Part shown: positions 11,068 to 26,449 of the stretch, piece by piece
How positions within the stretch are numbered: position 1 is the first letter of the stretch
Layout of the letters: each line of letters starts with the position of its first letter
Source: Lysobacter niastensis
GTDB lineage: Bacteria; Pseudomonadota; Gammaproteobacteria; Xanthomonadales; Xanthomonadaceae
Direction: 5' to 3'
DNA length: 64,000 nucleotides
Assembly: GCF_015453285.1 (NCBI RefSeq)
Contig: NZ_JADLZT010000008.1
Span: forward strand, 124,001 to 188,000
Notes under the pieces: generated by a model
Told to the model about the DNA's origin: nothing
Database searches by the model: none
The model's input: the letters and a program-made list of their open reading frames with translations, nothing else
Position numbers and translations under genes: made by a program

Positions 11068-13767
11068 ATGACTTCTCTCCACGCCGTCATCCACGACCTG
11101 CTTCAGAACGACCCGGACCCGACCGAGACCCGCGAGTGGATCGAGTCCGTCCAGGCCGTCATCGAGCGCGAAGGCGCGCAGCGCGCCCATCAGCTGCTCG
11201 AGGGCATGGTCGAGGTCACGCGCCGCGCCGGCGCGCATCTTCCGTTCTCGCCGACCACCGAATACGTCAACACCATTCCCGCGCACCTGGAGGCAAAGAG
11301 CCCCGGCGACCACGCGATGGAATGGCGCATCCGTTCGATCCTGCGCTGGAACGCGCTGGCCATGGTCGTGCGCGCCAACCGCAAGCCCGGTGACCTCGGC
11401 GGCCACATCGCCAGCTTCGCGTCGGCGGCCACGCTCTATGACGTCGGTTTCAACCACTTCTGGCGCGGCCCGGAAGGCGACCACCCCGGCGACATCATCG
11501 GCGTGCAGGGCCACAGCTCGCCCGGCATCTACGCGCGCTCGTTCCTCGAAGGCCGCATCAGCGAATCGCAGCTCGACCACTTCCGCATGGAAGTCGACGG
11601 CCGCGGCATCAGCTCCTACCCGCACCCGTGGCTGATGCCGGACTACTGGCAGGTCGCCACCGTGTCGATGGGCCTGGGCCCGCTCGCCGCCATCTACCAG
11701 GCGCGCAACTGGAAGTACCTGGAAGGCCGCGGCCTGATGCCGAAGACCGACCGCAAGGTCTGGGCGTTCCTCGGCGACGGCGAAACCGACGAGCCCGAGA
11801 GCCTGGGCGCGATCTCGGTCGCCGGCCGCGAAGGCCTCGACAACCTGGTCTTCGTCATCAACTGCAACCTGCAGCGCCTCGACGGTCCGGTGCGCGGCAA
11901 CGGCAAGATCATCCAGGAGCTGGAAGGCCAGTTCCGCGGCGCCGGCTGGAACGTCATCAAGACGATCTGGGGCAGCTACTGGGATCCGCTCCTCGCGCGC
12001 GACACCACCGGCAAGCTGCGCCAGCTGATGATGGAAACCGTCGACGGCGAGTACCAGAACTGCAAGGCCTTCGGCGGCGCGTACACGCGCGAGCACTTCT
12101 TCAACAAGTACCCCGAGACCGCGCAGCTCGTCGCCAACCTCAGCGATGACGACATCTGGCGCCTCAACCGCGGCGGCCACGATCCGCACAAGGTCTACGC
12201 GGCGTACCACGAAGCGGTGAACACCAAGGGCATGCCCACCGTCATCCTGGCCAAGACGGTCAAGGGCTACGGCATGGGCGCGGCCGGCGAGTCGCTCAAC
12301 CCGACCCACCAGACCAAGAAGCTCGACGACGAAGCCGTGCGCCTGTTCCGCGACCGCTTCAACATCCCGGTCACCGACGCGCAGCTGGCCGAAGGCAAGG
12401 TGCCGTTCTTCCACCCGGGCGAGAAGTCGCCGGAAGTGGAATACATGATGGAGCGCCGCAAGGCGCTCGGCGGCTTCCTGCCGCAGCGCCGCCGCAAGGC
12501 CAGCACCTCGCTCGAAGCGCCCAAGCTGGAAGTCTTCGACCGCCTGCTCAAGTCCAGCGGCGACCGCGAGATCAGCACCACGATGTCGTTCGTGCAGGCG
12601 CTCAACATCATCCTGCGCGACAAGCAGGTCGGCCCGCGCTGCGTGCCGATCGTCGCCGATGAGGCGCGCACGTTCGGCATGGAAGGCCTGTTCCGCCAGC
12701 TCGGCATCTACGCGCCGCAAGGCCAGAAGTACAAGCCGGTCGACCGCGACCAGCTGATGTACTACCGCGAGGACGAGGCCGGCCAGGTGCTGGAAGAAGG
12801 CATCACCGAAGCAGGCGCGTTCTCCAGCTGGATGGCCGCGGCCACCAGCTACAGCACCAACGACCTGCAGATGCTGCCGTTCTACATCTTCTATTCGATG
12901 TTCGGCTTCCAGCGCATCGGCGACAGCGCCTGGCAGGCAGCGGACATGCGCTCGCGCGGCTTCCTGCTCGGCGCCACCGCCGGCCGCACCACCATTAATG
13001 GTGAGGGCCTGCAGCACGAGGACGGCCACAGCCACCTGCTGGCCAGCGCCATCCCCAACTGCCGCGCCTACGACCCGACGTTCGGTTTCGAAGTGGCCGT
13101 CATCCTGCAGCACGGCATGCAGCGCATGCTCACCGAGCAGGTGGACGAGTACTACTACATGACCGTGATGAACGAGAACTACACCCACCCGGACATGCCG
13201 GAAGGTGCAGCCGAGGGCATCATCAAGGGCATGTACCTGCTGAAGGACGCCGGCAAGCCGAAGAAGGGCGAACTGCGCGTGCAGCTGCTCGGCTCCGGCA
13301 CCATCCTGCGCGAAGCCATCGCCGCGGCGGAAATGCTCGACAAGGATTTCGGCGTCACCGCCGACATCTGGTCCTGCCCCAGCTTCACCGAGTTGGCGCG
13401 CGACGGCGAAGACGCCATCCGCCACAACCGCCTCAACCCGGAAGGCACGCAGCGCAAGCCCTACGTCACCACGCTGCTGGAAGGCCGCCAGGGCCCGGCG
13501 ATCGCCGCGACCGATTACGTGCGCGCCTTCTCCAACCAGATCCGCGAGTTCGTGCCGATGAAGTACACGGCGCTGGGCACCGACGGCTTCGGCCGCTCGG
13601 ATACCCGCGCCAACCTGCGCCGCCACTTCGAAGTGGACCGCAACTACATCGCCCACGCCGCGATTGCCGCGCTGGCCGCGGAAGGCAAGATGACGGCGAA
13701 GGACGTCGCCCGCGCGATCAAGCAGTACAAGATCGACGGAGAGAAACCGAACCCGCTGGGCGCGTGA
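11068..13767 (+). CDS. aceE: Pyruvate dehydrogenase E1 component, homodimeric
   Basis: The 899-residue product is full length for AceE. It contains the thiamine-diphosphate binding signature GDGETDEPES followed by a downstream asparagine (FVINCNLQRLDGPVRGN), the transketolase-like central domain (IVADEARTFGMEGLFRQLGIY) and the C-terminal domain ending in IKQYKIDGEKPNPLGA. It decarboxylates pyruvate and acetylates the lipoyl group of AceF in the cytosolic pyruvate dehydrogenase complex. The aceF and lpd genes are not in the window downstream; instead a terminator and an HPP-family gene follow. The last ~90 codons are repeated in diverged form at 14898-15166. Confidence 0.97.
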   Translation: MTSLHAVIHDLLQNDPDPTETREWIESVQAVIEREGAQRAHQLLEGMVEVTRRAGAHLPFSPTTEYVNTIPAHLEAKSPGDHAMEWRIRSILRWNALAMVVRANRKPGDLGGHIASFASAATLYDVGFNHFWRGPEGDHPGDIIGVQGHSSPGIYARSFLEGRISESQLDHFRMEVDGRGISSYPHPWLMPDYWQVATVSMGLGPLAAIYQARNWKYLEGRGLMPKTDRKVWAFLGDGETDEPESLGAISVAGREGLDNLVFVINCNLQRLDGPVRGNGKIIQELEGQFRGAGWNVIKTIWGSYWDPLLARDTTGKLRQLMMETVDGEYQNCKAFGGAYTREHFFNKYPETAQLVANLSDDDIWRLNRGGHDPHKVYAAYHEAVNTKGMPTVILAKTVKGYGMGAAGESLNPTHQTKKLDDEAVRLFRDRFNIPVTDAQLAEGKVPFFHPGEKSPEVEYMMERRKALGGFLPQRRRKASTSLEAPKLEVFDRLLKSSGDREISTTMSFVQALNIILRDKQVGPRCVPIVADEARTFGMEGLFRQLGIYAPQGQKYKPVDRDQLMYYREDEAGQVLEEGITEAGAFSSWMAAATSYSTNDLQMLPFYIFYSMFGFQRIGDSAWQAADMRSRGFLLGATAGRTTINGEGLQHEDGHSHLLASAIPNCRAYDPTFGFEVAVILQHGMQRMLTEQVDEYYYMTVMNENYTHPDMPEGAAEGIIKGMYLLKDAGKPKKGELRVQLLGSGTILREAIAAAEMLDKDFGVTADIWSCPSFTELARDGEDAIRHNRLNPEGTQRKPYVTTLLEGRQGPAIAATDYVRAFSNQIREFVPMKYTALGTDGFGRSDTRANLRRHFEVDRNYIAHAAIAALAAEGKMTAKDVARAIKQYKIDGEKPNPLGA

Positions 13768-13900: not shown

Positions 13901-14875
13901 ATGAGCCAGTCCCCGTTTCTGCATGAGCTCCGCCTGTTGCTGGGCATCGAGCGCAACACCACCCGGCATGGCGAGAAGTGGATCTCCGGCGTTGGCGCGG
14001 CGATAGGCATCCTGGCCGTCTGGTGGCTGACGCGCTGGTCTTTGGGCGATGCCGCCACGCCGGCCGGCGTGTTGATGATCAGCTCGATGGGCGCTTCGGC
14101 CGTGCTGCTTTTCGCCGTGCCGCACGGCGCCTTGTCGCAGCCCTGGGCCGTGATTGGCGGGCATCTGGTCTCGGCCGCGATAGGAGTCACCTGCCAGCGC
14201 CTGCTACCGGGCCACGCCTGGACCGCGGCGTTGGCCGTCGGCCTGGCGGTGGGCGCCATGTACTACCTGCGCTGCATCCACCCGCCCGGCGGTGCGACGG
14301 CGCTGACCGCTGTCATCGGCGGTCCGGACATCCACGCCCTGGGTTACCACTACCTGCTGGTGCCTGTGCTGGTGAACGTGCTGGCCATCCTGGCGATGGC
14401 CGTGGCGTTCAATGCCGCGTTTGCGTGGCGCCGCTATCCCGCGCACCTGCACCGTCGCCAACAGCCTTCCCGCATCACCCAGCCCGCGCAGCGCCAGTTC
14501 GAGTTGACCCAGGAGGACTTCTCCGCCGCCATGGAGCAGCTCAACTCCTATGTAGACATCACGACCGAGAACCTGACCGAATTGCTGGAACTGGCCAAGC
14601 AGCACGCCGAGCGCAACATCACCCACCCCGATGCCATCGTGCCCGGCCGCTACTACAGCAACGGCAAGCTGGGCCGGTTGTGGAGCGTGCGGCAGTTGCA
14701 GGCGGGAGTTGCACACGTTCCCGGCACCGGCGCGGGCACAGCCCCGTTGCGCTATCACGTGGTCGCTGGCGATCAGGCAGGGCAGTCCGGCAGCAGCGGC
14801 GCGGACGAATTCCGGCAGTGGGCGCGCTTCGAAGTCGTGCCCCAGGACAATGGCCGCTGGGTCAAGGCGGATTAG
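13901..14875 (+). CDS. HPP family integral membrane protein
   Basis: The 324-residue protein opens with about four to five transmembrane helices (roughly 25-175) containing the family signature around CIHPPGGATALTAVIGG, and ends in a hydrophilic cytosolic domain of about 140 residues with LTEEDF-like helical text and a possible CBS-derived region. HPP proteins are inner-membrane proteins; some cyanobacterial relatives have been linked to nitrite transport, but the substrate here is unknown. It is bracketed by aceE with its terminator on one side and a diverged copy of the aceE 3' end with a related terminator on the other, which suggests it arrived or was rearranged by recombination through aceE sequence. 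Confidence 0.85.
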   Translation: MSQSPFLHELRLLLGIERNTTRHGEKWISGVGAAIGILAVWWLTRWSLGDAATPAGVLMISSMGASAVLLFAVPHGALSQPWAVIGGHLVSAAIGVTCQRLLPGHAWTAALAVGLAVGAMYYLRCIHPPGGATALTAVIGGPDIHALGYHYLLVPVLVNVLAILAMAVAFNAAFAWRRYPAHLHRRQQPSRITQPAQRQFELTQEDFSAAMEQLNSYVDITTENLTELLELAKQHAERNITHPDAIVPGRYYSNGKLGRLWSVRQLQAGVAHVPGTGAGTAPLRYHVVAGDQAGQSGSSGADEFRQWARFEVVPQDNGRWVKAD

Positions 14876-14897
14876 GGCAAGGAAGGAAGGCTGCCAG

Positions 14898-15166
14898 GGG
14901 GCGGTGCTACCGATACGTGCGCGCCTTCTCCAACCAGGGTCCGCGAGTGCGTGCCGATGAAGTCCACGGCGCTGGGCACCGACGGCTTCGGCCGTTCGGA
15001 CACCAGCGCCAAACTGCGCCGCCACTTCGAAGTGGACCGCAGCTACATCGCCCACGCCGCCATCGCGGCTCTGGCCGCGGAAGGCAAGATGACGGCCAAG
15101 GGTGTCGCCCGAGCGATCAAGCAGTACAAGATCGACGGAGAGAAGCCGAACCCGATTGGGGCTTAA
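14898..15166 (+). pseudogene. Duplicated, diverged 3' end of aceE
   Basis: From about 14898 the DNA repeats 13500-13767 at roughly 90 percent identity by eye, including ACGTGCGCGCCTTCTCCAAC, and ends with the same protein tail, IKQYKIDGEKPNP followed by IGA. The copy has small indels near its left end (GGGTCCGCGAGTG), so it cannot be read as a complete E1 domain; an ATG at 14951 opens a 71-codon frame that is probably not a functional protein. The order aceE, terminator, HPP gene, aceE tail, terminator is what single-crossover or site-specific integration into the 3' end of aceE would leave, one end being the displaced native or incoming tail. Confidence 0.85.
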
Positions 15167-15647: not shown

Positions 15648-18257
15648 ATGAATCCGCAGATCGAGCAGTTCGTAAAGGAAATCAGGCAGAGGTTGCCTGC
15701 ACATGGATCACCCGAGTCTGCTGCCAATGAGCTGCGCAGCTTCATCGTGAGTGTGACCGGGACGTTCTCGCCCGAAATGGAATCAAACCTTGCCGAGGCG
15801 CTCGGTCAAGTGCAGAGCACGCTGCAGAAGGTTGAGATTCTTAGGCGAAACTCGCTTACCAAAACGCGCGACGACTGGTATCCGGGTCCTGCAGCTACTG
15901 ATCAGCACTGGCCGGCTTTGCAAGGCTACCTGCGGAACGCCAAGAATTGGGATCACGAGTCGATCGGCGTCATTGACGAGAGTTCCAGCGAAGTCGTGTC
16001 CCTCCTGGCCAATCCGGCGGAAGAACAGTTCCGCTGCAGAGGTCTTGTCGTAGGGTATGTCCAGTCCGGCAAGACGGCGAACATGACTGCCGTGATCGCA
16101 AAGGCGGTCGATGCGGGTTACAACCTGATCGTGCTGCTCGGCGGAGTGACGAACAAACTGAGGGCGCAGACCCAGCGGCGTCTGCTCAGCGACATTGTGG
16201 AGCGCCATCGCCATATGTGGCAGCTCTACACGACCGTCGATGACGACGGCGATTTCGCTAGGCCGCCCAACGGTCAGTTCACGATGCCGGTGACTGGTCG
16301 CGCCCAGCTCGTCGTGATGAAGAAGTGGACATCTAGGCTGAATGCATTTCTGCAGACAGTGGAGCGCACTCCGCCGACTGTTCTGAGGTCACTCAAGACG
16401 CTGATCATCGACGACGAGTGCGACCAAGCATCCGTCAACTCTTCGTCGAAAGAGCATGACATGACGAGCATCAACGAGGCGATCAGGAAGATCATTCGGG
16501 CCCTGCCAGCAGTCTCATATGTGGGCTACACCGCAACGCCATTCGCGAACGTCTTCATCAACCCATTTCCGCACAACAAGGACGAGCTGGACGATCTGTA
16601 CCCGGAGGATTTCATTACTGACTTGCCGAGACCGAAGGACTATTTCGGAGCGAGGGAAGTCTTCGGCTTTGACCCGGTCGATGCGGCCAATGACGAAGGG
16701 GCATCGGCCGGGCGCGACATGATCAGGATCATCCTCGCTGATGAAGTGGCAAAGGTGCGTCCTGCCAGCAACAAGGATCGCGGAACCTTCATGCCGGCAA
16801 TAGCCAAGGAACTGGAGCGGGCGCTGCTCTGGTTCCTAATTACGAGCGCACTCCGGCGGCGGCGCGGTCAAGCAGGGTCCCATATGACCATGCTTGTGCA
16901 CACATCTCCCAACGTCAATCAGCACACCCGCATGGCGGAATCGATCCGCGCGTGGCTTACCCTGCATGCTGACGCGATCAGGAACGCGAGCGGCGGCGCT
17001 TGGGATCTTCTCAAGGAGGTCTGGGCACTCGAAACCGACCGCGTCCCGCTTGAAGGGAAGGATGAGAACTCGCTGGATCCCGATGGGCTGCTGCCTTGGT
17101 TGAAGGAGGTGCTCGGCAAGCTGGAAGTGGCCGTAGAGAATGGCGAAAGCGTTGAGCGGCTCAATTATGCGGACGAGGCCAAGACCTATATTGTCGTCGG
17201 CGGCTCGGTCCTGGCTCGTGGCTTGACCTTGGAAGGCTTGTGCGTTTCCTACTTCCTCCGCACCTCGCAGCAGTACGACACCCTGCTTCAGATGGGGCGC
17301 TGGTTTGGGTTCCGTCATGGCTACTCTGAGCTGCCTAGGCTCTGGGTGACGCAGGATCTTGTGTCGAACTTTCGTGCACTGGCACGGATCGAGGAGGAGA
17401 TTCGGGAGGACATCGCCTTCTATCGCGAACGCAAGGCATCTCCCCTCGAGTTTGCAGTAAAGGTTCGCCAGATTCCCGGGCTGGCCATCACGTCAGCCGC
17501 CAAGATGCGGCACGCATACAGGACAAGCATCAGCTTCGAGGGCAAGCACGTTCAGACGATACGCTTCGACCATCGAAAGGATGGCATCGTGTCTTCCAAC
17601 TGGTCGGCAGCGAGTCGCTTCATTGATGAGGCAAAGGCGAAGGGGAAGTTCGACCACGAACGCGGTGTTTTCGAGGCCGTCCCCTTGGCCTCTGTCCGAA
17701 AGTTCCTGCTGGATTTCCAGATCTCCGATCAGCACCTGGACCTGAAGCAGGACATGCTCCTGAGCTACCTGGATAAGGCCGCTGCAGGCCTTGGCTTTTG
17801 GAACGTGGCGGTTGTTGGGCCGGAGAGGGGACAGGCTTCTAGCCGGGCACTCGGTTTCTTGGGCAACGTCCCGACCAACAGGCGATCGAGATTGGCGGAG
17901 TCAGGGGAGTACGCCGACATCAAGGCTTTGATGTCGATGCGGGACATCCTGGTGGATGCGGACGATTCGCGCGTGAGCCCTGGCGATAAGTGGAAGGATC
18001 TGAAGGGCCGGAGGCCCCAAGTGCCTCTGCTGCTGCTCTATCCCATCGAAGCGGAGTCGAAGCCCTCGGCACCGACCATTTCAAAAGACGGACGCCCCAC
18101 TCGTGTTGCACTCGATGCCGTCGATGACCTGATCGGCTTCGGCATCGTATTTCCGGGTGCACTCGACAGGTCGGGTGGCTACTACTCGGTAGAACTGGAC
18201 GTCCCCACGCCTGAGCAACTTGAGGATGATGGCAGTCAGGGAGACGAGAATGGTTGA
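15648..18257 (+). CDS. Z1-domain superfamily-2 helicase, core of the defence operon
   Basis: The 869-residue protein shows a Walker A site GYVQSGKT at 136-143, a Walker B/DEAD-like DDECD at 255-259, the motif III-like segment GYTATPFANVF shortly after, and C-terminal helicase motifs in LARGLTLEG and QMGRWFGFR. This set, and the text around Walker A, identify the Z1 domain found in endonuclease-type proteins of restriction-like operons. It probably moves along or opens DNA with ATP and recruits the neighbouring nuclease. ATG 15648 is chosen because the protein has good charge pattern from MNPQIEQFVKEI and the upstream frame is not family-like. It overlaps the next gene by eight bases. The DNA is clearly less GC-rich than aceE. 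Confidence 0.85.
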   Translation: MNPQIEQFVKEIRQRLPAHGSPESAANELRSFIVSVTGTFSPEMESNLAEALGQVQSTLQKVEILRRNSLTKTRDDWYPGPAATDQHWPALQGYLRNAKNWDHESIGVIDESSSEVVSLLANPAEEQFRCRGLVVGYVQSGKTANMTAVIAKAVDAGYNLIVLLGGVTNKLRAQTQRRLLSDIVERHRHMWQLYTTVDDDGDFARPPNGQFTMPVTGRAQLVVMKKWTSRLNAFLQTVERTPPTVLRSLKTLIIDDECDQASVNSSSKEHDMTSINEAIRKIIRALPAVSYVGYTATPFANVFINPFPHNKDELDDLYPEDFITDLPRPKDYFGAREVFGFDPVDAANDEGASAGRDMIRIILADEVAKVRPASNKDRGTFMPAIAKELERALLWFLITSALRRRRGQAGSHMTMLVHTSPNVNQHTRMAESIRAWLTLHADAIRNASGGAWDLLKEVWALETDRVPLEGKDENSLDPDGLLPWLKEVLGKLEVAVENGESVERLNYADEAKTYIVVGGSVLARGLTLEGLCVSYFLRTSQQYDTLLQMGRWFGFRHGYSELPRLWVTQDLVSNFRALARIEEEIREDIAFYRERKASPLEFAVKVRQIPGLAITSAAKMRHAYRTSISFEGKHVQTIRFDHRKDGIVSSNWSAASRFIDEAKAKGKFDHERGVFEAVPLASVRKFLLDFQISDQHLDLKQDMLLSYLDKAAAGLGFWNVAVVGPERGQASSRALGFLGNVPTNRRSRLAESGEYADIKALMSMRDILVDADDSRVSPGDKWKDLKGRRPQVPLLLLYPIEAESKPSAPTISKDGRPTRVALDAVDDLIGFGIVFPGALDRSGGYYSVELDVPTPEQLEDDGSQGDENG

Positions 18258-19248
18258 GCGGCCTATCGAGCGCTGGGCGAGGCTGCGAGCCTCGGGGGCT
18301 GGTGACGGTGCAGTGGAAGTTCCAAGCCTCTCTTCGCTTGTCGAAACCGGCTACGGTCCGATCAGGTTCGCGGTTGGTCCCAGCGGTGAGCCACGCCTGA
18401 TGGTGCCCTGCGGAACCGGTGTATCACTGAAGTCGGAAGCATCGAACGGCAAGCTGGCTGTCACCGTGTCCAAGTACGACGTCGATGGTCGCAAGACGCT
18501 CTTCATCGACGTAATGTGCGTTGAGCGGGCACTGGACACGGTATTCGCGGAGCTTGCCGACGAGATTGTTCACCGGGTATCCACGGGGCAAGGGCCGGTG
18601 GCTGCCGTGGAGGGGACAATCGCTGATTTCCGTGATCTCTTACGTGATGCTCAGACACAAACGGTTAAAGATCCGCAGATCGTGGGGCTGTTGGGCGAGC
18701 TCCTCGTACTTCGGTGGCTCGTGGAGTCCTCTCCGCATGCGATCGAAGCGTGGACCGGACCATACGATCAGAGGCACGACTTCCGTCGGCGGGAGCACGC
18801 GATCGAGGTCAAGACATCTACCCGCGCCGACACCACGTCCGTGACAATCAGCAGCTGTGAGCAGCTCTCGGAGCCAGCAGGGGGGACTCTCTCGCTCGTC
18901 CATCTGAATGTGGAGCGCGCCGATGGCGGCGAGCTCTCCGTCTCCAGTTTAAGCAATGAGATCATTGCAGCGGGCGTTGCGCAGCATGCCCTTGGAAGGG
19001 CGCTCGCCGAGATGGGGTGTCTCGATCCGAATGCGGCCGAATGGAACAGAGTTTCCTACGCCTTGGAGAAAGCCAGCGGCTATCGGGTTGGTCCGGGCTT
19101 CCCCAGGATCACGTCGACCCAGTTCCCGGGAGGAGTTATGCCGGAAGGAATCGAGTCTATCGTCTACGTGGTCGACCTGAAGGTCGCCCGACAATTTCAA
19201 CTCTCGGAACTTGAGTTGAAGGCTGCTTTCTCGAGGATGGCATCGTGA
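18250..19248 (+). CDS. PD-(D/E)XK nuclease of the defence operon
   Basis: The 332-residue protein has the restriction-endonuclease fold signature: E150 in GLLGELLVLRWL, D177 in RHDFRR, and E186-V-K188 in AIEVKTS, the arrangement of the DUF4420-type PD-(D/E)XK family. It is the likely DNA-cutting subunit. The chosen ATG at 18250 overlaps the Z1 stop (ATGGTTGA) and has AGGGAGA about seven bases upstream; ATGs at 18220 and 18229 are possible but lie deeper in the Z1 gene. The 3' end overlaps the next gene by four bases through GTGA. N-terminal ~110 residues look like a separate beta-rich domain of unknown role. Confidence 0.82.
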   Translation: MVERPIERWARLRASGAGDGAVEVPSLSSLVETGYGPIRFAVGPSGEPRLMVPCGTGVSLKSEASNGKLAVTVSKYDVDGRKTLFIDVMCVERALDTVFAELADEIVHRVSTGQGPVAAVEGTIADFRDLLRDAQTQTVKDPQIVGLLGELLVLRWLVESSPHAIEAWTGPYDQRHDFRRREHAIEVKTSTRADTTSVTISSCEQLSEPAGGTLSLVHLNVERADGGELSVSSLSNEIIAAGVAQHALGRALAEMGCLDPNAAEWNRVSYALEKASGYRVGPGFPRITSTQFPGGVMPEGIESIVYVVDLKVARQFQLSELELKAAFSRMAS

Positions 19249-21092
19249 GAGGGCTCGAGCTTTACAGTGAACCCTTCGCAAAGACAGGCAACATGGCGGC
19301 AGAGGGTTTCAAGCGTCTCTTGGGTCGGCCGACGCTGGGTCTTCTGCAGACGTTGATAAGGGAGGGTATCCAGAACGTGCTGGATGCGTCCCATGGGGCC
19401 GAAGGCCCTAAGGTCCTGATTCGTCTGCGCACGCTTACAGCAGAGCAACGGAAGGCCCTTTCTGAAGGAGTTTTGGTAGAGAGACCGCGCGGCGACTCGA
19501 CGCGTGCAGACATCGACGCAGCGCTGTCCAAGTCGGACCTTCGTGTTCTTGAGCTCTGCGATTTCGGAACCGAGGGCCTTTCAGGTCCAACGAGGGCCGA
19601 TGCACCACACGATGGAGAGGAGCCTCTCAACTTCGTTAACTTCCTCCGTAACGTCGGCGCGGCGAGAGATACACACCACGGCGGCGGTACCTACGGGTAC
19701 GGAAAGAGCTCGTTGTACGCGATAAGCAGCTGTTCCACGATCGTCGTCGACAGTCAGACTCGCTGCGCCAATCACGCCGAGCGCCGACTCATGGCCTGTC
19801 ATCTTGGCGCCGCGTTCGACGCTACGGGAAGCGATGGCGAGCGTCGGCGGTACACCGGCCGCCATTGGTGGGGGATCCGGGACGGTGTCGATTCGGTTGA
19901 TCCTGCTACCGATGAAAGGGCAGCTGCGCTGTCCGAAGAGCTAGGGATGTTCCCCAGGGGGCGTGCTCAGACGGGCACCTCCATCCTGATCATTGATCCG
20001 CTGTTGGGAGACGACGCTTCCCAGTCGGCGATTGAAGACATCGTCGAAACCGTGCTGTGGAACTTCTGGCCCAGAATGGTCTCGTCTACGCCACAAGCAA
20101 GAAGGCTCACAGTGGAAGTGGAGCTTGAAGGCGAAAGCGTTCCTGTGCCGAGTCCCGAGGAATTTCCACCGCTGGACCTCTTTGCCTCGGCGATGTCGGA
20201 GCACCGAGCCAAGGGAGCTGATCTTCAGTCAATTGTGTGCGGCAACGCCAGGAAGCAGCTCGGCAATCTCGTCCGAAAGAATGGGCTGCGTGCAGAGCGA
20301 CGCTGGCCGGCCACAAGGGAGGGGTCGTTGATTCCAAAGCAGGCCAGTCATATCGCGCTGATGCGGCCTGTCGAGCTGGTGGTCAAGTACATCGAGGGGG
20401 ATCCGCTTCCGGACCGCCGCTTCGACTGGGCTGGTGTCTTCATCTGTTCGGATAGTGACGAGATCGAGGAGGCATTTGCACTTGCGGAACCTCCTGCACA
20501 CGACGACTGGATTCCTGACAACCTTCCGAAAGGGAACGCAAAGACATTCGTCCGCGTTGCTCTGAGACGACTTAATGAGATCGCTCGGCCGCCGAGCAGT
20601 CACGCGCTACCCGCCACAGCATCAGTTGAAGCTGGCCCGTCCCTGGCGGCGACTGCCGCCAGGATGGGAGCGTTCCTGGATGCTGTATCCGCCACGGGGC
20701 CGGGTAGGCCACCACGCAAGCCTGGCGCTGTATTGCCTCGGAAGTCGCTTGCCGTTTCAGCGCCGAAGTTCGAGGGATTGCAGCTAGATGCTGCAGGTCG
20801 ACCCTTGGCCAAGTTCAGTGCGGAGCTGCACAACGATGGGTCGGACGCGAACCTGCATTTGATTGTTGCCCCCTACCTGGTGGTTGATGGGGGCTCTACA
20901 GATGCAGCCGACCTGCCTGAAGGGTTCGAGTTGAATGTTTCGCAGATCCTGCTGGGCGGCCTGAGAAAGGCCGTGGAAGGTCCCTGGATCAAGGTCGGGC
21001 GAGACGGTGGAACGGTCGAGATGCTTGTGCCCACTGTAAAAGAAGCCGCCGTCGGCGTGAGGCTCCAACTCAAATCCGGGAGGCCTGAATGA
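19245..21092 (+). CDS. MORC/MutL-like GHKL ATPase of the defence operon
   Basis: The N-terminal third is a GHKL ATPase: E40 and N44 in the N box REGIQNVLDAS, D106 and G108 in CDFGTEGLSG, and the phosphate-binding G2 loop GGGTYGYGKSS at 146-156. The lysine and serine after the last loop resemble MORC and MutL relatives. The rest (to 615 residues) includes a likely S5-like domain and a C-terminal beta-rich part ending in a conserved-looking VRLQLKSG. By analogy it would clamp or loop DNA through ATP-driven dimerisation and license the nuclease. It uses a GTG start overlapping the previous stop, and its own TGA overlaps the next ATG, so expression is coupled. Confidence 0.8.
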   Translation: MRGLELYSEPFAKTGNMAAEGFKRLLGRPTLGLLQTLIREGIQNVLDASHGAEGPKVLIRLRTLTAEQRKALSEGVLVERPRGDSTRADIDAALSKSDLRVLELCDFGTEGLSGPTRADAPHDGEEPLNFVNFLRNVGAARDTHHGGGTYGYGKSSLYAISSCSTIVVDSQTRCANHAERRLMACHLGAAFDATGSDGERRRYTGRHWWGIRDGVDSVDPATDERAAALSEELGMFPRGRAQTGTSILIIDPLLGDDASQSAIEDIVETVLWNFWPRMVSSTPQARRLTVEVELEGESVPVPSPEEFPPLDLFASAMSEHRAKGADLQSIVCGNARKQLGNLVRKNGLRAERRWPATREGSLIPKQASHIALMRPVELVVKYIEGDPLPDRRFDWAGVFICSDSDEIEEAFALAEPPAHDDWIPDNLPKGNAKTFVRVALRRLNEIARPPSSHALPATASVEAGPSLAATAARMGAFLDAVSATGPGRPPRKPGAVLPRKSLAVSAPKFEGLQLDAAGRPLAKFSAELHNDGSDANLHLIVAPYLVVDGGSTDAADLPEGFELNVSQILLGGLRKAVEGPWIKVGRDGGTVEMLVPTVKEAAVGVRLQLKSGRPE

Positions 21093-22003
21093 GTTCTCGG
21101 ATTGCATTTCCGTTCCTAGTTCTGCCCGATGGTGTTGTCTCCTTCGGAGGATGGATGATCGGGGATCCCGGGGCTCCGTTGGCTGCGGCAGGGGCCTTGC
21201 TGGAGAACTGGGACTACGCCCGGGATCTTGAGGTTGGGGCTTCTGTAACGATTGACTGGGCTGCTGCTGCCGCTGCGTTGCAGCTTCCGATTTCCGCGCT
21301 CAAGCTCAAGCTGTGCCTTATCGCAGGTACCGGCACGGGCAACCTGCCCCGCAGACAGGACCGTCTTTGCGAAAGGGTTGTCGATAGCTCCATCCGAGAA
21401 TCCCATCTTTCAGCGGTTGTCTTGGGTAGCAATCTGTCGGGCCGGTTGCGGCTTTCCCTGGTGGTAACTCTCGTTGCCCCATGTGAAGGTGGCACAGTGC
21501 TTTCCCCCCAGGTTCAGGGGGCTCGCTTGTGGCAATCGCGACAGGACATCCTGATCGAAGATGGAGGCGATTCCCGCTTTCCTCTGGAGACTGCGAGTTT
21601 CACCGAAATATTCAAAGGGAAACCGCACGAGAACGCGCCTTGGTATCTGCACTGGACGCCCGGCGTGCTTCAGGCGGATTTCTCCGCATGCGTCAGGCTC
21701 TATGTGAACTCGGACCGACCTGACGTTCTTGCGCGCTTTGTCGAAGGTGACGCCCCCACTCTTCAGGCGATCTTGGGGGATGTTGTGTCGCAGATGGTGG
21801 AATCCGTGATTGCTAAAGAAGATGCCGCTGAGCTCTTGGCAGAGTGTGGGGAAGGCTCTGTTGGGCAGCAGGTTCAGCAATGGCTCGACTTCGCATTCCC
21901 AAGCCAGGAAGTCGGGAGCATCAAAGCCCTATGCGATCAGAAGCCGGGCACATTCCGGGCCGCGATCCTTGCCGCAATGGAGACGAAGGGGTCTCAACAA
22001 TGA
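21089..22003 (+). CDS. Unrecognised defence-operon protein A
   Basis: I do not recognise this 304-residue protein. The first ~200 residues are beta-strand rich with many short hydrophobic stretches and little charge clustering; the last ~90 are mainly helical and acidic (AKEDAAELLAECGEGS). No signal peptide, membrane segment, zinc-binding cysteine cluster or nuclease motif is seen. Its ATG overlaps the MORC-like gene's stop (ATGA) and its TGA overlaps the next ATG, so it is almost certainly a subunit of the same complex, perhaps a structural or DNA/target-sensing one. The function is inferred only from context. Confidence 0.7.
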   Translation: MSSRIAFPFLVLPDGVVSFGGWMIGDPGAPLAAAGALLENWDYARDLEVGASVTIDWAAAAAALQLPISALKLKLCLIAGTGTGNLPRRQDRLCERVVDSSIRESHLSAVVLGSNLSGRLRLSLVVTLVAPCEGGTVLSPQVQGARLWQSRQDILIEDGGDSRFPLETASFTEIFKGKPHENAPWYLHWTPGVLQADFSACVRLYVNSDRPDVLARFVEGDAPTLQAILGDVVSQMVESVIAKEDAAELLAECGEGSVGQQVQQWLDFAFPSQEVGSIKALCDQKPGTFRAAILAAMETKGSQQ

Positions 22004-22776
22004 GCATTCTGTTGATGCCTCGCCTCACCTCGCTCGGCGTGTCGGCGGTTCTGGAGTCGGCGGGCTCGGTGGCGCCGACGCCGGAGGGGGCGAAAGCAAT
22101 TCTGGAAGACGGCGCGTCGATGCGGTCCTTTGCCGCCAGTGGCGGCAATCGCGCGGAAGAACTTGCGTGGAACGTTGGGGCGGCCTTAAGGGAAATCGCC
22201 ATCAATTCGGGGTTTCCCGGGAACCCCAGTCAGGTGGCTCGCTCGAAGTTCGACCGTGAGGCAGCCATCTACCTGGCTGCTCATCCGGACCTCGCAACCG
22301 GAGAAGCCTTGCGGGACGACGTGTGGGCGTACATCGCGACTATCGTGGTTCCCGATCTTGTCGCATGGCGGTTCCCCGACCGCGGGCAGCACCGGTTTGA
22401 GGGCGGCGTTCGCAACGCGCTCCAGCGCTTGTGGTCCAGAGGGACTGTTCTGGATCGAGGGGAGCATCACGTTGCTCGATGGGGGCTCGTTCAGGAGTTG
22501 AGCGAGGACGCTGCCGTCCAGATATTCGAGCGCGCATCAATCGCCGGAAACAGGCCGCTCGCCGTCGCGTTGGCGGAGTGCTGGGTGCGAATGGCTGGCA
22601 AGATCGGGCGCGGGAATATGGAGGATGTCATGCGGAGGGCTACCAAGCTGATCAGGCTCCGAAACGAGATTGTGGATCTCGCTGGCCTTCCTGCCGCGGA
22701 ACTGGACACCTTGGTGGCTTCGAGCTTCGACTTGGCCTGGGAGTCGATCAGCGCTGACTCGCTTACGGCCTGTTGA
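22000..22776 (+). CDS. Unrecognised defence-operon protein B (possibly DUF6339-like)
   Basis: This 258-residue protein has a central block DDVWAYIATIVVPDLVAWRFPD followed by RFEGGVRNALQRLW, a pattern that I associate, without certainty, with DUF6339 proteins found near restriction systems. It is largely helical and without membrane segments. The ATG at 22000 overlaps the previous stop (ATGA); an upstream in-frame ATG at 21844 lies well inside the previous gene and is not favoured. It is the last gene of the coupled block; its stop codon lies inside a TTGACA promoter-like element and a terminator-like hairpin follows 30 bases later. Role unknown. Confidence 0.7.
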   Translation: MSILLMPRLTSLGVSAVLESAGSVAPTPEGAKAILEDGASMRSFAASGGNRAEELAWNVGAALREIAINSGFPGNPSQVARSKFDREAAIYLAAHPDLATGEALRDDVWAYIATIVVPDLVAWRFPDRGQHRFEGGVRNALQRLWSRGTVLDRGEHHVARWGLVQELSEDAAVQIFERASIAGNRPLAVALAECWVRMAGKIGRGNMEDVMRRATKLIRLRNEIVDLAGLPAAELDTLVASSFDLAWESISADSLTAC

Positions 22777-22802
22777 CAATTCCAGGGTTCGTGCGATCCT
22801 GG
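22773..22802 (+). promoter_or_regulatory. Promoter-like element with CCAGG/CCTGG inverted repeat before the methyltransferase
   Basis: A perfect -35 hexamer TTGACA (22773-22778) overlaps the stop of the preceding gene. A weak -10 candidate, GATCCT, lies 16 bases later. Between and around it are CCAGG (22782-22786) and CCTGG (22798-22802), an inverted repeat with 11 bases between arms; both are CCWGG, the Dcm/EcoRII recognition sequence. The arms could be an operator or methylation target for autoregulation by the following cytosine-5 methyltransferase; whether that enzyme recognises CCWGG is not known. Confidence 0.4.
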
Positions 22803-22805
22803 AGC

Positions 22806-22828
22806 TGAGGCCGTCCGGCCTCATTTTT
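22806..22828 (+). terminator. Terminator or attenuator hairpin in the methyltransferase leader
   Basis: TGAGGCC (22806-22812) pairs perfectly with GGCCTCA (22817-22823) across a four-base loop and is followed by TTTTT. It ends 18 bases before the methyltransferase ATG and lies downstream of the only good -35 box, so it could both end the upstream operon and attenuate the methyltransferase. Confidence 0.6.
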
Positions 22829-22846
22829 CGTGCTCGCGTTCCGAAT

Positions 22847-24358
22847 ATGCAAATACCCGTAGTCGACATTTTTGCCGGTCCTGGCGGGCTGGGTGAGGGT
22901 TTCTCAGCCTTTGTGCCAAAGCCCTCGTCGCAGGCTGCCCCTTTCCGAATTGCTATTTCGGCTGAGATGGAAAGCAATGCAGCGAGGACGCTTCGCTTGC
23001 GCGCGTTCTTCAGGCAATTCGCACCAGGTGAGGCGCCGGCGAGCTATTACGATTACGTGGCTGGGCGTACCGGCCAGCCTTGGACCGATGCGACGGAAGC
23101 GCAATGGGTCGCGGCAGGGGAAGAGGCGCGGCAGTTGACATTGGGTGTTCCGGACCATGATGCGTTCCTCCGCGAAAGAATTCGCCCCGTCGCTCAACGT
23201 GATCAGCCCTGGGTTCTTATTGGTGGTCCACCGTGCCAGGCGTACTCGCTTGTCGGCAGGTCCAGGAACTTGGGCAAGGCCGGATACAAGGCCGAAGAGG
23301 ATCACCGCCATTTCCTTTACACGCACTACCTGAAGATCCTGAAGGAATTCAGGCCCGCGGCGTTCGTAATGGAGAACGTCAAGGGCATCCTTTCGTCCAA
23401 GGTCGGTGGTGAGTTGATGTTCCCTCGGATTCTCGAGGACTTGCATCAACCTGGTGGTCGGAATGGGCCGAGATACCAGATCGTTCCGTTGGTCATTTCG
23501 AATCACGACTCCGACAAAGATGTGGCGGGAAAGCGCTTCATCCTTCGAGCCGAGGAGTTGGGCGTTCCCCAAGCAAGGCATCGCGTGGTGCTTCTCGGAT
23601 TGATCGAGGGCATCGACCCGGCCAAAGGCAAGCGCCTTGTTCCACTCAGTGAGCGATTCGGCGTTTCCGACGTCATCGACGGTCTTCCGAAGCTTCGCAG
23701 TGGCGTTACAGACCGTGAGGTCGGAAGTTGGTGCGAATTCGCAGAGTACGTGCTGGAAAAGGCGCGCGACGCATCCAACGACGAAGCTGTCGCCGCCAAG
23801 CTGGAGAAGTTTGCCGCGAGCGTGAAAAAGCGCGACCCGGGAATGGGGGGGCGCTGGATTAAGGGAGCGACTGACGGGGATAGAGTTCCCGATCACCTGA
23901 GGTCGTGGCTGATCGACCCGAGGCTGGATGGCGTTCTGAACCACGAGGTGCGAGAGCACATGGCTTCGGACCTGAAACGCTATGCCTTCGCGTCGGCATT
24001 TGCGCGAGTTCATGGGCATTCTCCCCGTGGGGCGAAAGAGTTTCCCTCAGCCCTCTATCCAAAGCACAAGAACTGGAAGAGTGGAAAATTTGTTGACCGC
24101 TTCAAGGTCCAGCTGTCCGGTGCACCGAGCTCGACGGTAACAAGCCATCTCTGCAAGGATGGGCACTACTTCATTCATCACGACCCGAGTCAGCTTCGCA
24201 GCCTGTCTGTTCGCGAGGCCGCACGCCTCCAGACTTTCCCAGACAACTATTTCTTCGAGGGATCTCGCGGAGCGCAGTTCAAGCAGGTGGGTAACGCCGT
24301 ACCTCCCTGGATGGCTCGGCAGATTGCGGGCGTCGTGCACTCGTATCTGAAGCCTTGA
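22847..24358 (+). CDS. DNA (cytosine-5) methyltransferase
   Basis: The 503-residue enzyme shows the C5-methyltransferase motifs in order: motif I DIFAGPGGLGEGF at residue 7 onward, the catalytic Cys130 in motif IV GGPPCQAYS, motif VI MENVKG with E176, motif VIII PQARHRV, and motifs IX-X VREAARLQTFPDNY and FKQVGNAVPP. It would methylate cytosine in the host's recognition sequence with S-adenosylmethionine, protecting host DNA from the nuclease system. The region between motifs VIII and IX (about 250-440) is the target recognition domain and sets specificity, which I cannot read. The start at ATG 22847 places motif I at the N terminus. Converges on vsr with three bases between stops. Confidence 0.93.
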   Translation: MQIPVVDIFAGPGGLGEGFSAFVPKPSSQAAPFRIAISAEMESNAARTLRLRAFFRQFAPGEAPASYYDYVAGRTGQPWTDATEAQWVAAGEEARQLTLGVPDHDAFLRERIRPVAQRDQPWVLIGGPPCQAYSLVGRSRNLGKAGYKAEEDHRHFLYTHYLKILKEFRPAAFVMENVKGILSSKVGGELMFPRILEDLHQPGGRNGPRYQIVPLVISNHDSDKDVAGKRFILRAEELGVPQARHRVVLLGLIEGIDPAKGKRLVPLSERFGVSDVIDGLPKLRSGVTDREVGSWCEFAEYVLEKARDASNDEAVAAKLEKFAASVKKRDPGMGGRWIKGATDGDRVPDHLRSWLIDPRLDGVLNHEVREHMASDLKRYAFASAFARVHGHSPRGAKEFPSALYPKHKNWKSGKFVDRFKVQLSGAPSSTVTSHLCKDGHYFIHHDPSQLRSLSVREAARLQTFPDNYFFEGSRGAQFKQVGNAVPPWMARQIAGVVHSYLKP

Positions 24359-24361
24359 TCC

Positions 24362-24802
24362 TCAATCTGGAACTTCGATCGATCTTTGGTTGGAAGTTAT
24401 GAAGTCGACCACGCGACCAATCGCGTGATCGCTATTGGACCTCAGCGCGCACTCCCAGACGACGGCAACCCGCCATCCCAGATCGCGAAGCTTCTCTTCG
24501 TTCGCATGGTCTCTGACCTTGTTGGCTGCGATCTTCGCCACCCAGAAATCTGTTCTGGTGGCAGGGACAGTCGCGAAGCGGCACCCGTGGTGGCCGTGCC
24601 AGAAGCAGCCATGAACGAAAACGGCCACTTTGTGGCGCGGAAGAGCCAAATCTGGCCGTCCCGGAAGGTCTCGTGGCGATAGCCGATAGCGAAACCCCAG
24701 GCGGTGGAGAAATCTTCGGACGAGCATCTCCGGCTTTGTATTGCGAGACCGGATCGACGCCATCATCCGGGATCGGACTTCGGGGGAGACTACGTCTGCC
24801 AT
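24362..24802 (-). CDS. vsr: Very short patch repair endonuclease
   Basis: The 146-residue protein begins MADVVSPEVRSRMMASIRSRNTKPE and has LPGRPDLAL and VFVHGCFWHGH, the canonical Vsr features, including catalytic Asp in the PD-type fold and the zinc-binding Cys and His residues. It nicks beside T:G mismatches made when 5-methylcytosine deaminates, limiting C-to-T mutation at the methyltransferase's sites. It is convergent with the cytosine methyltransferase, the usual pairing. An ATG five codons upstream (24817) is the alternative start. Confidence 0.93.
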   Translation of the reverse strand: MADVVSPEVRSRMMASIRSRNTKPEMLVRRFLHRLGFRYRLSPRDLPGRPDLALPRHKVAVFVHGCFWHGHHGCRFATVPATRTDFWVAKIAANKVRDHANEEKLRDLGWRVAVVWECALRSNSDHAIGRVVDFITSNQRSIEVPD

Positions 24803-25768: not shown

Positions 25769-26000
25769 AGCGGTTTCCTTGCGTCCTTTTAGCGAGTCCG
25801 GATGTGCCGGACGGTCCTTGCTCCGCCGCGATCCGTGCGGACGGTTGCTGCATGCCGACGGGTCGGCGAGGGAGCGGGGCCAGTGTGGATGCAGTGCGCG
25901 ACTGTGACACCGGCGATCCACGCAAATGTGCCTTGACGTGCTCGCAGTGCCGGTAGCAGATTCGCTTGCAAGGAGCGTCGAAACTCCGACACATGGCGGT

Positions 26001-26172
26001 ACCCACCTCCGAAAGACCGGTGGGTTTTTTGTGCCCGTACTGCGGGTGCGCCGACGCTGAAAGTCTCTGCGTCGGGAGGGCGGCTAATACAACACCCGCA
26101 AGGGGAATACGCCCGCCGACCATGTGCGGTTTCGAACCTCCCGACACCTTGCGTCGCGTCCGCGACGCAAGC
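26001..26172 (+). ncRNA. Candidate structured RNA or leader with nested hairpins
   Basis: Several perfect stems follow one another: CCCACC/GGTGGG (26002-26007 with 26019-26024) followed by six T; TGCGGGTG (26041-26048) with CACCCGCA (26093-26100), enclosing CCGACGC/GCGTCGG (26051-26057 with 26069-26075); and TTGCGTCGCG/CGCGACGCAA (26149-26170, loop TC). The first looks like a terminator of a short plus-strand transcript; the rest lie in the leader of the XAC0095-like gene at 26198. The 25769-26197 gap contains no convincing protein gene. The fold is a reading by eye. Confidence 0.4.
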
Positions 26173-26197
26173 CGGCAAGGCTGCCTGGAGAATCGAG

Positions 26198-26449
26198 ATG
26201 CGAAAGGATCATCGCACCAACCCCGCCACGCCCAAGGCCAACGCGCCGATGGGCTACGTGCTCCCCGAAGACGCCCACCTGGCCCTGGTCCAGACCCGCG
26301 ACCACCTGCGCCTGCTCGCGCGCCTCACCGAACCACGCACCGACACCGGTGCGGACGAGCTGCCGCTATGTCCGCTCGCGCTGGCCCACTGCTTCGATCG
26401 GTTGGCTCGGGATCTGGACGAGGTGGTGGGGGCGGCAGTGTGGGGCTAG
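26198..26449 (+). CDS. XAC0095-family small protein (copy 1)
   Basis: The 83-residue product has the core GYVLPEDAHLALVQTRDHLRLLARL followed by LPLCPLALAHCFDRLARDLDEVV, which matches the XAC0095 family of small proteins typical of Xanthomonadaceae. It has no signal peptide and consists of two predicted amphipathic helices; its function is unknown. A paralogue with the same core is at 62642-62899. The start MRKDHR corresponds to MRKETR in the paralogue, and GGAGA precedes it. The long hairpin-rich leader is unusual for so small a gene. Confidence 0.75.
   Translation: MRKDHRTNPATPKANAPMGYVLPEDAHLALVQTRDHLRLLARLTEPRTDTGADELPLCPLALAHCFDRLARDLDEVVGAAVWG

What the first reader, a model, noticed from the sequence alone, without database searches (positions are those of the whole stretch)
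15648..24802. Seven-gene MORC/Z1 restriction-like defence system
In order: Z1 helicase, PD-(D/E)XK nuclease, MORC-like GHKL ATPase, two unrecognised proteins, C5 cytosine methyltransferase and convergent Vsr. The first five genes overlap by 4-8 bases each. Helicase, nuclease, GHKL clamp and protective methylation together suggest a system that senses unmodified DNA and cuts it after ATP-dependent remodelling. From memory, Iyer, Abhiman and Aravind (2008) predicted MutL/MORC ATPases in restriction-modification systems with Z1 proteins; I do not know of a characterised member with exactly this seven-gene set.
Basis: partly seen in the sequence, partly recalled or inferred. Interest (0 to 1): 0.85.

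Follow-up and report, generated by a model that had tools for sequence, protein, structure and literature searches.

The report
Composite restriction-type phage-defence operon
A bacterium carries a seven-gene island that looks like a restriction-modification defence put together from two building blocks that also occur apart, a DNA motor with a nuclease and a three-gene ATPase cassette, next to a DNA methylase and its repair enzyme; this kind of system has been predicted before, and I found no report of a test of it.

Summary
The seven genes are real and correctly placed. HMMs confirm Z1 motor, DUF4420 nuclease, C5 methylase and Vsr. The third protein is a GHKL-type ATPase by motifs, but not MORC: the MORC motif is in 0 of 41 aligned sequences, the paraMORC2 residues ExxxH in 41 of 41. 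The order Z1-DUF4420-GHKL-P4-P5 recurs in 75 of the 80 loci kept by a scan with the GHKL. The set fits "Type I" of a putative defence system proposed in silico (PMC9523054), so the kind is not new. Added here: the operon is a composite. Z1 and DUF4420 are homologous to MzaC/MzaD of MZA; GHKL and P5 to PADLOC candidates PDC-M33A and M33C (DUF6339), whose trio occurs without Z1 or DUF4420 beside varied restriction genes. A same-genus genome has an MZA-type operon at the same chromosomal site. The methylase follows the core only weakly; its target-recognition domain covaries with P5 but not clearly with the other core proteins (37 of 5000 permutations), making P5 the best candidate site reader. 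The signal is modest. Function untested.

The parts
15648..18257 (+). Z1-type superfamily II ATPase/DNA motor (869 aa), homologue of MzaC
   Evidence: PF10593 E 7e-66; NCBIfam MzaC 348.6 bits, cut-off 1500; Walker A GxVQSGKT 36/36, DThhQXuRhFG 35/36 aligned sequences; hhalign to the MzaC-like protein of L129 E 5e-102
18250..19248 (+). DUF4420 PD-(D/E)XK nuclease (332 aa), homologue of MzaD
   Evidence: PF14390 1.6e-47; E150, D177, E186-x-K188 invariant in 40/40 aligned sequences; hhalign to the MzaD-like protein of L129 E 5e-23
19245..21092 (+). paraMORC2-like GHKL ATPase (615 aa, GTG start), homologue of PADLOC PDC-M33A
   Evidence: motifs I-III 41/41, ExxxH columns 41/41, MORC motif 0/41; PDC-M33A in 41/41 members at E up to 0.01; hhalign to a nine-sequence M33A alignment E 5.5e-26; no Pfam match of its own
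21089..22003 (+). P4 (304 aa): predicted beta-sandwich (about residues 3-159) plus helical C-terminal part; no family found
   Evidence: AlphaFold2 pLDDT 91.9, pTM 0.65; generic beta-sandwich matches, best Z 8.4; no sequence link to PDC-M33B
22000..22776 (+). P5 (258 aa): all-helical, distant DUF6339/PDC-M33C relative; candidate site reader
   Evidence: PF19866 in 46/63 sequences at E up to 0.1, own E 0.0088 below cut-off; hhalign to an eight-sequence M33C alignment E 1.3e-6, probability 90.7%; pLDDT 94.9, pTM 0.90; covaries with methylase TRD; 10 of 44 conserved positions are Arg
22847..24358 (+). C5-cytosine DNA methyltransferase (503 aa)
   Evidence: PF00145 6.9e-40; PADLOC DrmMII 1.9e-84; GGPPCQ, ENV and QARHR motifs seen in the translation
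24362..24802 (-). Vsr-type very short patch repair endonuclease (146 aa), convergent
   Evidence: TIGR00632 151.1 bits, cut-off 97.85
11068..13767 (+). aceE, whose 3' end borders the variable site (context, not part of the system)
   Evidence: match in 30 of 30 genomes searched, own included; name from family knowledge
14885..15162 (+). second copy of the aceE 3' end (286-column alignment, 88.8% identity)

Best explanation
It is a composite, ATP-dependent restriction-modification type defence. Shown: the C5 methylase and Vsr pair, the Z1 motor with intact ATPase motifs, the DUF4420 nuclease with intact E-D-ExK, the paraMORC2-like ATPase with intact GHKL motifs, and the conserved five-gene operon. 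Inferred: the methylase marks a host DNA site and Vsr repairs the T:G mismatches that 5-methylcytosine deamination leaves; P5 (with P4 and the GHKL ATPase, which would close on DNA like a MutL-type clamp) recognises the site when it is unmethylated; this licenses the Z1 motor to move along DNA and DUF4420 to cut. Z1+DUF4420 form one exchangeable module (shared with MZA, where MORC and AIPR take the other place) and GHKL-P4-P5 the other (GHKL and P5 shared with PDC-M33).
For: HMMs and catalytic motifs. Operon in 75 of 80 loci; methylase in 71 and Vsr in 62 of 80, no Vsr without a methylase. P4 and P5 profiles hit the same 2 of 369 class genomes, own included. Z1/DUF4420 are homologous to the MzaC/MzaD-like proteins of an MZA-type operon at the same aceE site of a same-genus genome; GHKL, P4, P5 show no similarity to its MORC and AIPR. 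GHKL and P5 are homologous to PDC-M33A/C; 9 of 9 M33 trios opened have a DNA methylase within about 5.2 kb. The characterised Z1 proteins N.CglI/N.NgoAVII hydrolyse ATP on unmethylated sites, only with their nuclease partner, in systems with a C5 methylase (passages of PMC4267653). Core proteins co-diverge (Spearman 0.71-0.88), the methylase follows weakly (0.24-0.29); TRD covaries with P5 (partial r 0.197, 37/5000) and with the control Vsr (0.31, 0/5000), not significantly with Z1, DUF4420, GHKL or P4; P5 signal also with the methylase at the far end of the operon (0.287, 75/3000, 15 loci).
Against: No experiment. The GHKL fold rests on motifs and on homology to PDC-M33A (itself without Pfam match in the two tested), not on a structure. 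The P5-TRD signal is small: about 0.007 nominal, about 0.04 after correction for five proteins; sliding windows elsewhere reach nearly the same values (P5 0.25, Z1 0.22, GHKL 0.21). Before dereplication other pairs also stood out (TRD-DUF4420 13/300, catalytic part-Z1 4/300, catalytic part-P5 10/300), and with the methylase downstream P5 correlates with the catalytic part too (0.228, 85/3000). The Vsr control correlates with the catalytic part as well (0.283), so it is not a clean control. In 9 of 80 loci no methylase was found (some contigs are short). P5 has no recognised DNA-binding fold. P4 has no detectable similarity to PDC-M33B.
Confidence: 0.55

Rival explanations
1. An MZA-like abortive or DNA-structure sensing system in which the methylase and Vsr only travel along: the five-gene core senses a phage replication intermediate and acts without reference to methylation.
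For: The methylase follows the core far more weakly than the core genes follow each other (Spearman 0.24-0.29 against 0.71-0.88), its place and orientation vary, and 9 of 80 loci show none. MZA shares Z1 and DUF4420.
Against: Methylase in 71 of 80 loci; M33 trios also lie near methylases (9 of 9 opened); TRD-P5 covariation; the MZA-type operon of L129 has methylase and Vsr too.
Confidence: 0.25
2. A plain Type II-like restriction system: DUF4420 is a site-specific endonuclease and Z1, GHKL, P4 and P5 only help.
For: E-D-ExK invariant in 40/40 aligned sequences; TRD-DUF4420 partial r is positive (0.125, 13/300; 0.081; 0.117).
Against: TRD-DUF4420 is not significant after dereplication (808/5000; 280/3000); five-gene conservation in 75/80; two Rhizobiaceae plasmids and L071 keep Z1-GHKL-P4-P5 without DUF4420.
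Confidence: 0.12
3. Not a defence but a DNA repair or epigenetic maintenance cluster (GHKL + Vsr + methylase acting as a private mismatch repair).
For: GHKL proteins and Vsr are partners in mismatch repair (argued in PMC2292703).
Against: Sits in a site of variable content where some same-genus genomes carry MZA-type genes or PADLOC matches such as PDC-S49 and PDC-S36 (in one search, 5 of 10 proteins matched, one of them just outside the site); patchy distribution (P4 in 3 of 398 phylum genomes); Vsr in only 62/80.
Confidence: 0.05

Closest known systems
Miller et al. 2022 putative defence system, Type I (PMC9523054)
   Same: Core of Z1 protein, PD-(D/E)XK protein and C5 methylase plus three further genes, associated with DNA repair endonucleases (section read; Fig. 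5 legend)
   Different: I could not see which the three genes are (figure and supplement not held); the section reports no experiment; a link to PDC-M33 is not in the section
MZA (mzaABCDE; Gao et al. 2020, recalled, not held; summarised in PMC9523054)
   Same: Homologous Z1 motor (MzaC) and DUF4420 nuclease (MzaD)
   Different: No match to MzaB, MzaE or MzaA; paraMORC2-like GHKL, P4 and P5 instead
PADLOC candidate PDC-M33 (A, B, C)
   Same: GHKL homologous to M33A; P5 distantly to DUF6339/M33C; same gene order and similar lengths
   Different: P4 has no detectable similarity to M33B; no Z1 or DUF4420 in 9 of 9 trio stretches of 14-17 kb
CglI / NgoAVII (N-protein Z1 motors)
   Same: Z1 SF2 ATPase with C5 methylase and separate nuclease; ATP hydrolysis on unmethylated sites (passages)
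   Different: Nuclease there is PLD+B3, not DUF4420; no GHKL trio mentioned in the passages
Iyer, Abhiman and Aravind 2008 MORC/paraMORC operons, third type (PMC2292703)
   Same: SFII helicase with DThhQXuRhFG, RE-fold protein with E-D-ExK, cytosine methylase, Vsr, GHKL
   Different: GHKL here is paraMORC2-like, not MORC (paraMORCs with such genes are also described there)

Membership tests
Miller 2022 Type I | Z1 + PD-(D/E)XK + C5 methylase core | tested here: met
Miller 2022 Type I | three further genes (six in all) and nearby DNA repair endonuclease | tested here: met
   GHKL, P4, P5 plus Vsr; by count, not identity
Miller 2022 Type I | identity of the three further genes | not testable with these tools
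   figure and supplement not held
MZA | MzaC and MzaD homologues | tested here: inconclusive
   homologous but far below NCBIfam equivalog cut-offs: 348.6 of 1500 and 67.5 of 420 bits
MZA | MzaB (MutL/MORC-type GHKL) | tested here: not met
   no MzaB match at E 1; hhalign probability 0.2%
MZA | MzaE (AIPR) and MzaA | tested here: not met
   no match for any of 7 proteins (for the methylase only 25 of 55 families were shown); P4/P5 against AIPR below 1%
PDC-M33 | M33A | tested here: met
   PADLOC 2e-12, best stretch residues 34-168, 41/41 members, profile E 5.5e-26
PDC-M33 | M33B | tested here: not met
   no PADLOC match, profile probability 1%
PDC-M33 | M33C | tested here: inconclusive
   no PADLOC match for P5; DUF6339 in 46/63 sequences at E up to 0.1; profile 90.7%, E 1.3e-6
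MORC family (Iyer 2008) | GhXhhpXXRhl motif | tested here: not met
   0 of 41 aligned sequences
paraMORC2 (Iyer 2008) | GHKL motifs plus conserved ExxxH | tested here: met
   41/41 here and 9/9 in PDC-M33A
paraMORC2 (Iyer 2008) | ExxxH lies in an S5 domain | not tested
   no structure predicted for the GHKL (both jobs went to P4 and P5)
CglI/NgoAVII | R-protein with PLD nuclease and B3 domain | tested here: not met
   no such match in any of the seven proteins

The most novel reading that the evidence does not exclude
The paraMORC2-P4-P5 trio is a portable site-sensing cassette for restriction systems: the DUF6339-like protein reads the unmethylated target of whichever methylase it travels with, the GHKL ATPase clamps, and the cassette gates unrelated cutting enzymes (Z1+DUF4420 here; AlwI, EcoRII-C or MutH/Sau3AI-type enzymes elsewhere). 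It can be exchanged for the MORC+AIPR pair of MZA, as the two operons at one aceE site suggest.
Probability: 0.3. Interest if true: 0.72.

Novelty: new member of a known kind. Interest (0 to 1): 0.48.

Why it matters
If right, it joins predicted systems (Miller Type I, MZA, PDC-M33) into one modular scheme: a motor-nuclease module and a sensor module exchanged independently. It gives a named candidate (P5/DUF6339) for the specificity part of Z1- and paraMORC-type restriction, testable by swapping one gene, and bears on what bacterial relatives of eukaryotic MORC ATPases do.

Tried and rejected
MORC identity: rejected (0 of 41). P4 or P5 as a split AIPR: no sequence support. P4 as a detectable PDC-M33B homologue: not found with one sequence or nine; only place and length agree. 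P5 against a single M33C protein was also negative (probability 3.7%); only the alignment gave a match. Profile searches of P4, P5, GHKL and Z1 against PDB sequences gave nothing useful. Fold searches: P4 only generic beta-sandwiches (Foldseek best E 2e-3; VIA-align best Z 8.4 over 103 residues, 3.1 A; its helical part barely tested); P5 no clear match (Foldseek best E 1.1; best Z 6.6 over 80 residues, 4.1 A). A missing match does not show a new fold. Linkage as the cause of the P5-TRD signal: not supported, since it persists with the methylase upstream, though that set has 15 loci and in the downstream set the catalytic part correlates with P5 as well. No relative was confirmed in IMG/VR viral contigs (79 pattern matches, none confirmed); megablast in E. 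coli genomes gave none; the annotated phage collection was not searched.

Parts given to calls: 80 of 316 confirmed relatives were kept by the tool, the closest ones, so 75/80 speaks for the close GHKL subfamily only. Alignments held the window plus 40 of 79 GHKL, 35 of 71 Z1, 39 of 77 DUF4420 (every second locus), 75 of 75 P4 and 62 of 77 P5 (200-320 aa only) homologues. For covariation, methylases under 480 aa (10 of 66 by the lengths) and P5 of 420 aa or more (one, L086) were left out; 54 loci; 51, then 37 after dropping loci with Z1 differing by 15% or less; 40 (window included). The first P5 model, on which the order count rests, was spoiled by a fused long frame; a model rebuilt from five seeds found P5 in 77 of the 80 loci. 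Only 6 of the plasmid records were opened, chosen by me for variety.


Full report
Observation. The first five overlap by 8, 4, 4 and 4 bases; 70 bases separate P5 and the methylase, and Vsr is convergent. Pfam, PADLOC and NCBIfam confirm Z1, DUF4420, C5 methylase and Vsr. The third protein has no Pfam match, but GHKL motifs I-III are in 41 of 41 aligned sequences (window plus 40 of 79 homologues), with E40, N44, D47, D106, G147, G148, G151, G153, K154, G244 and T245 invariant.

Which GHKL. Iyer et al. 2008 (parts 1 and 2 of 4 read) separate MORC, by GhXhhpXXRhl, from paraMORC2, by a conserved ExxxH. The MORC motif is in 0 of 41; the columns E415 and H419 are invariant in 41 of 41 (a narrower regular expression found 38 of 41). 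The only PADLOC match is PDC-M33A, in 41 of 41 members at E up to 0.01. A nine-sequence alignment of PDC-M33A-type proteins has the same E and H in 9 of 9 and matches ours by profile at E 5.5e-26 (profile columns 34-454; such E-values are for one comparison).

Recurrence. A scan of species genomes with the GHKL gave 316 confirmed relatives, of which the tool kept the best 80; none was confirmed in viral contigs. Of the 80, 75 have Z1-DUF4420-GHKL-P4-P5 in this order on one strand. Of the other five, L076 and L083 end at a contig edge where genes are missing; L052 shows no Z1 but has only 2377 bases before DUF4420; L048 starts within the GHKL gene and shows P4 but no P5; L071 lacks DUF4420. Methylase was found in 71 and Vsr in 62, no Vsr without methylase; their place and orientation vary. 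By record titles the hosts include Pseudomonadota, Cyanobacteria, Actinomycetota, Planctomycetota, Verrucomicrobiota and Myxococcota (phylum names recalled). In 398 genomes of the phylum, Z1 occurs in 26 and P4 (single-protein search) in 3, own included. P4 and P5 profiles hit the same 2 of 369 class genomes, own included. Two Rhizobiaceae plasmids carry Z1-GHKL-P4-P5 with no DUF4420 found in 20.9 kb.

A composite. Eleven same-genus genomes were read downstream of aceE. In 5 of 11 the window's sequence at 25969-26208 reappears 1.5-5.6 kb into the stretch, so the part between varies; in the window a second copy of the aceE 3' end (286 columns, 88.8%) lies inside it. One genome, G407 (L129), has there MORC/MzaB-like (PADLOC 5.8e-121), MzaC (2.7e-237), MzaD (1.3e-18) and MzaE/AIPR (2.4e-83), then Vsr and a C5 methylase on the other strand. 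Its first protein matches HATPase_c_3 (4.4e-30) and reads GFYVYRNGRLL, which fits the MORC motif by eye. Z1 and DUF4420 of the two operons are homologous (hhalign E 5e-102 and 5e-23); GHKL, P4 and P5 show nothing against MORC and AIPR. Elsewhere in the genus, 10 proteins from eight of the genomes were tested with PADLOC: 5 matched, 5 did not; the L119 match lies just beyond the conserved segment.

The other module. The Pfam family DUF6339 occurs in 3 of 398 phylum genomes (the window's own P5 is not among them). In these three it is the last of three genes: a GHKL protein, a protein of 278-288 aa, DUF6339; a C5 methylase lies in all three stretches (about 5.2 kb away in L165) and Vsr in two. 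PADLOC names the members tested PDC-M33A, B and C (M33A of L164 was not tested there). tblastn with two M33B proteins found 15 and 17 plasmids, nearly all of Bacillota. The six records opened show the trio near AlwI and Dam genes; near AlwI, Vsr and C5 methylase; near N6 methylase, S subunit, another methyltransferase, helicase and GIY-YIG genes (two near copies); near MutH/Sau3AI-type and dcm genes; and near an EcoRII-C enzyme and dcm, where DUF6339 is annotated as a short frame. So 9 of 9 trios opened have a DNA methylase within about 5.2 kb; HMMs find no Z1 or DUF4420 in these 9 stretches of 14-17 kb, while our GHKL model matches all nine (4.9e-9 or better). The plasmid records are a sample I chose. 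P5 matches M33C by profile at 90.7% (E 1.3e-6), though not with one sequence, and PF19866 in 46 of 63 sequences at E up to 0.1. P4 does not match M33B.

Who reads the site. In 37 dereplicated loci the five core proteins co-diverge (Spearman 0.71-0.88) while the methylase follows weakly (0.24-0.29). I asked which core protein tracks the methylase target-recognition domain (TRD) beyond the rest of the core. Vsr, which must know the site, served as control: partial r 0.31, 0 of 5000 permutations. P5: 0.197, 37 of 5000. Others: DUF4420 0.081 (808), Z1 0.042 (1441), P4 -0.003 (2514), GHKL -0.081 (4171). P5 against the methylase's catalytic part: 0.085 (767); Vsr against it 0.283 (0), so the control does not isolate specificity. 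Without requiring Vsr (40 loci) P5-TRD is 0.219, 15 of 3000; with the methylase downstream 0.211, 100 of 3000 (25 loci), there with 0.228 (85) for the catalytic part; upstream 0.287, 75 of 3000 (15 loci), catalytic part 0.063. The earlier run with 54 loci not dereplicated gave P5 0.225 (1 of 300) and DUF4420 0.125 (13 of 300) for the TRD, and for the catalytic part Z1 0.121 (4), P5 0.113 (10) and P4 0.086 (27 of 300). Suggestive, not strong: sliding windows elsewhere reach 0.22. P5's conserved positions are rich in arginine (10 of 44, against 23 of 258 overall; hypergeometric 0.0016), compatible with binding nucleic acid. Its model is confident and all-helical without a clear match. P4 is a beta-sandwich plus helical part.

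Mechanism. The Z1 proteins N.CglI (dimer) and N.NgoAVII (monomer) are SF2-type ATPases that hydrolyse ATP on DNA with unmethylated sites, only with their nuclease partner, at rates the authors take as consistent with translocation (PMC4267653, passages). I infer the same for this Z1, with DUF4420 cutting, and the GHKL trio in place of the B3 site-reading domain.

Prior knowledge. Miller et al. 2022 (section read; figure legend) proposed this composition as Type I, in silico. The held library returned only that paper for 'mzaABCDE', none for 'DUF6339' and none for 'PDC-M33'; in the listings I recognised no functional test of this set. Many subscription papers are not held, so this does not show that none exists.

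Verdict. A genuine, widespread, probably defensive operon; a new member of a system type already predicted. The added value is the modular composition, the correction to paraMORC2, and P5 as a testable site reader.

Noticed in passing
window 13479-13763 and 14885-15162: Second copy of the aceE 3' end (88.8% identity) with a TM_HPP gene (13901-14875) between the copies; the stretch after aceE varies within the genus.
   Followed up: partly
L129 480-9918: MZA-type operon (MORC, Z1, DUF4420, AIPR) with Vsr and C5 methylase at the same aceE site in a same-genus genome.
   Followed up: yes
L120, L125, L127, L128 after aceE; L119 just beyond the site: Other defence-like genes in same-genus genomes: PDC-S49, dCTPase-like, PDC-S36, DzbA-like, and an HNH/REase in L119.
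   Followed up: partly
L082 17968-19938 (-), L087 13153-15114 (-): In two cyanobacterial loci a second, different paraMORC2-like GHKL gene lies on the opposite strand near the system.
   Followed up: partly
L086 12843-15179: P5 is 779 aa in Enhygromyxa: DUF6339 at the N-terminus (3.5e-10) and a long extension without Pfam match.
   Followed up: partly
L005, L006: Rhizobiaceae plasmids with Z1-GHKL-P4-P5 but no DUF4420, flanked by AAA ATPases, a helicase, EcoRII-type and Vsr genes.
   Followed up: partly
L067 4182-11840: Methylase, Z1 and GHKL frames are broken into several pieces in a Devosia MAG; sequencing errors or decay.
   Followed up: no
L163 1498-4421 (-): A PDC-M33 trio followed on the same strand by HD-CE and ORC-CDC6-like genes.
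   Followed up: no
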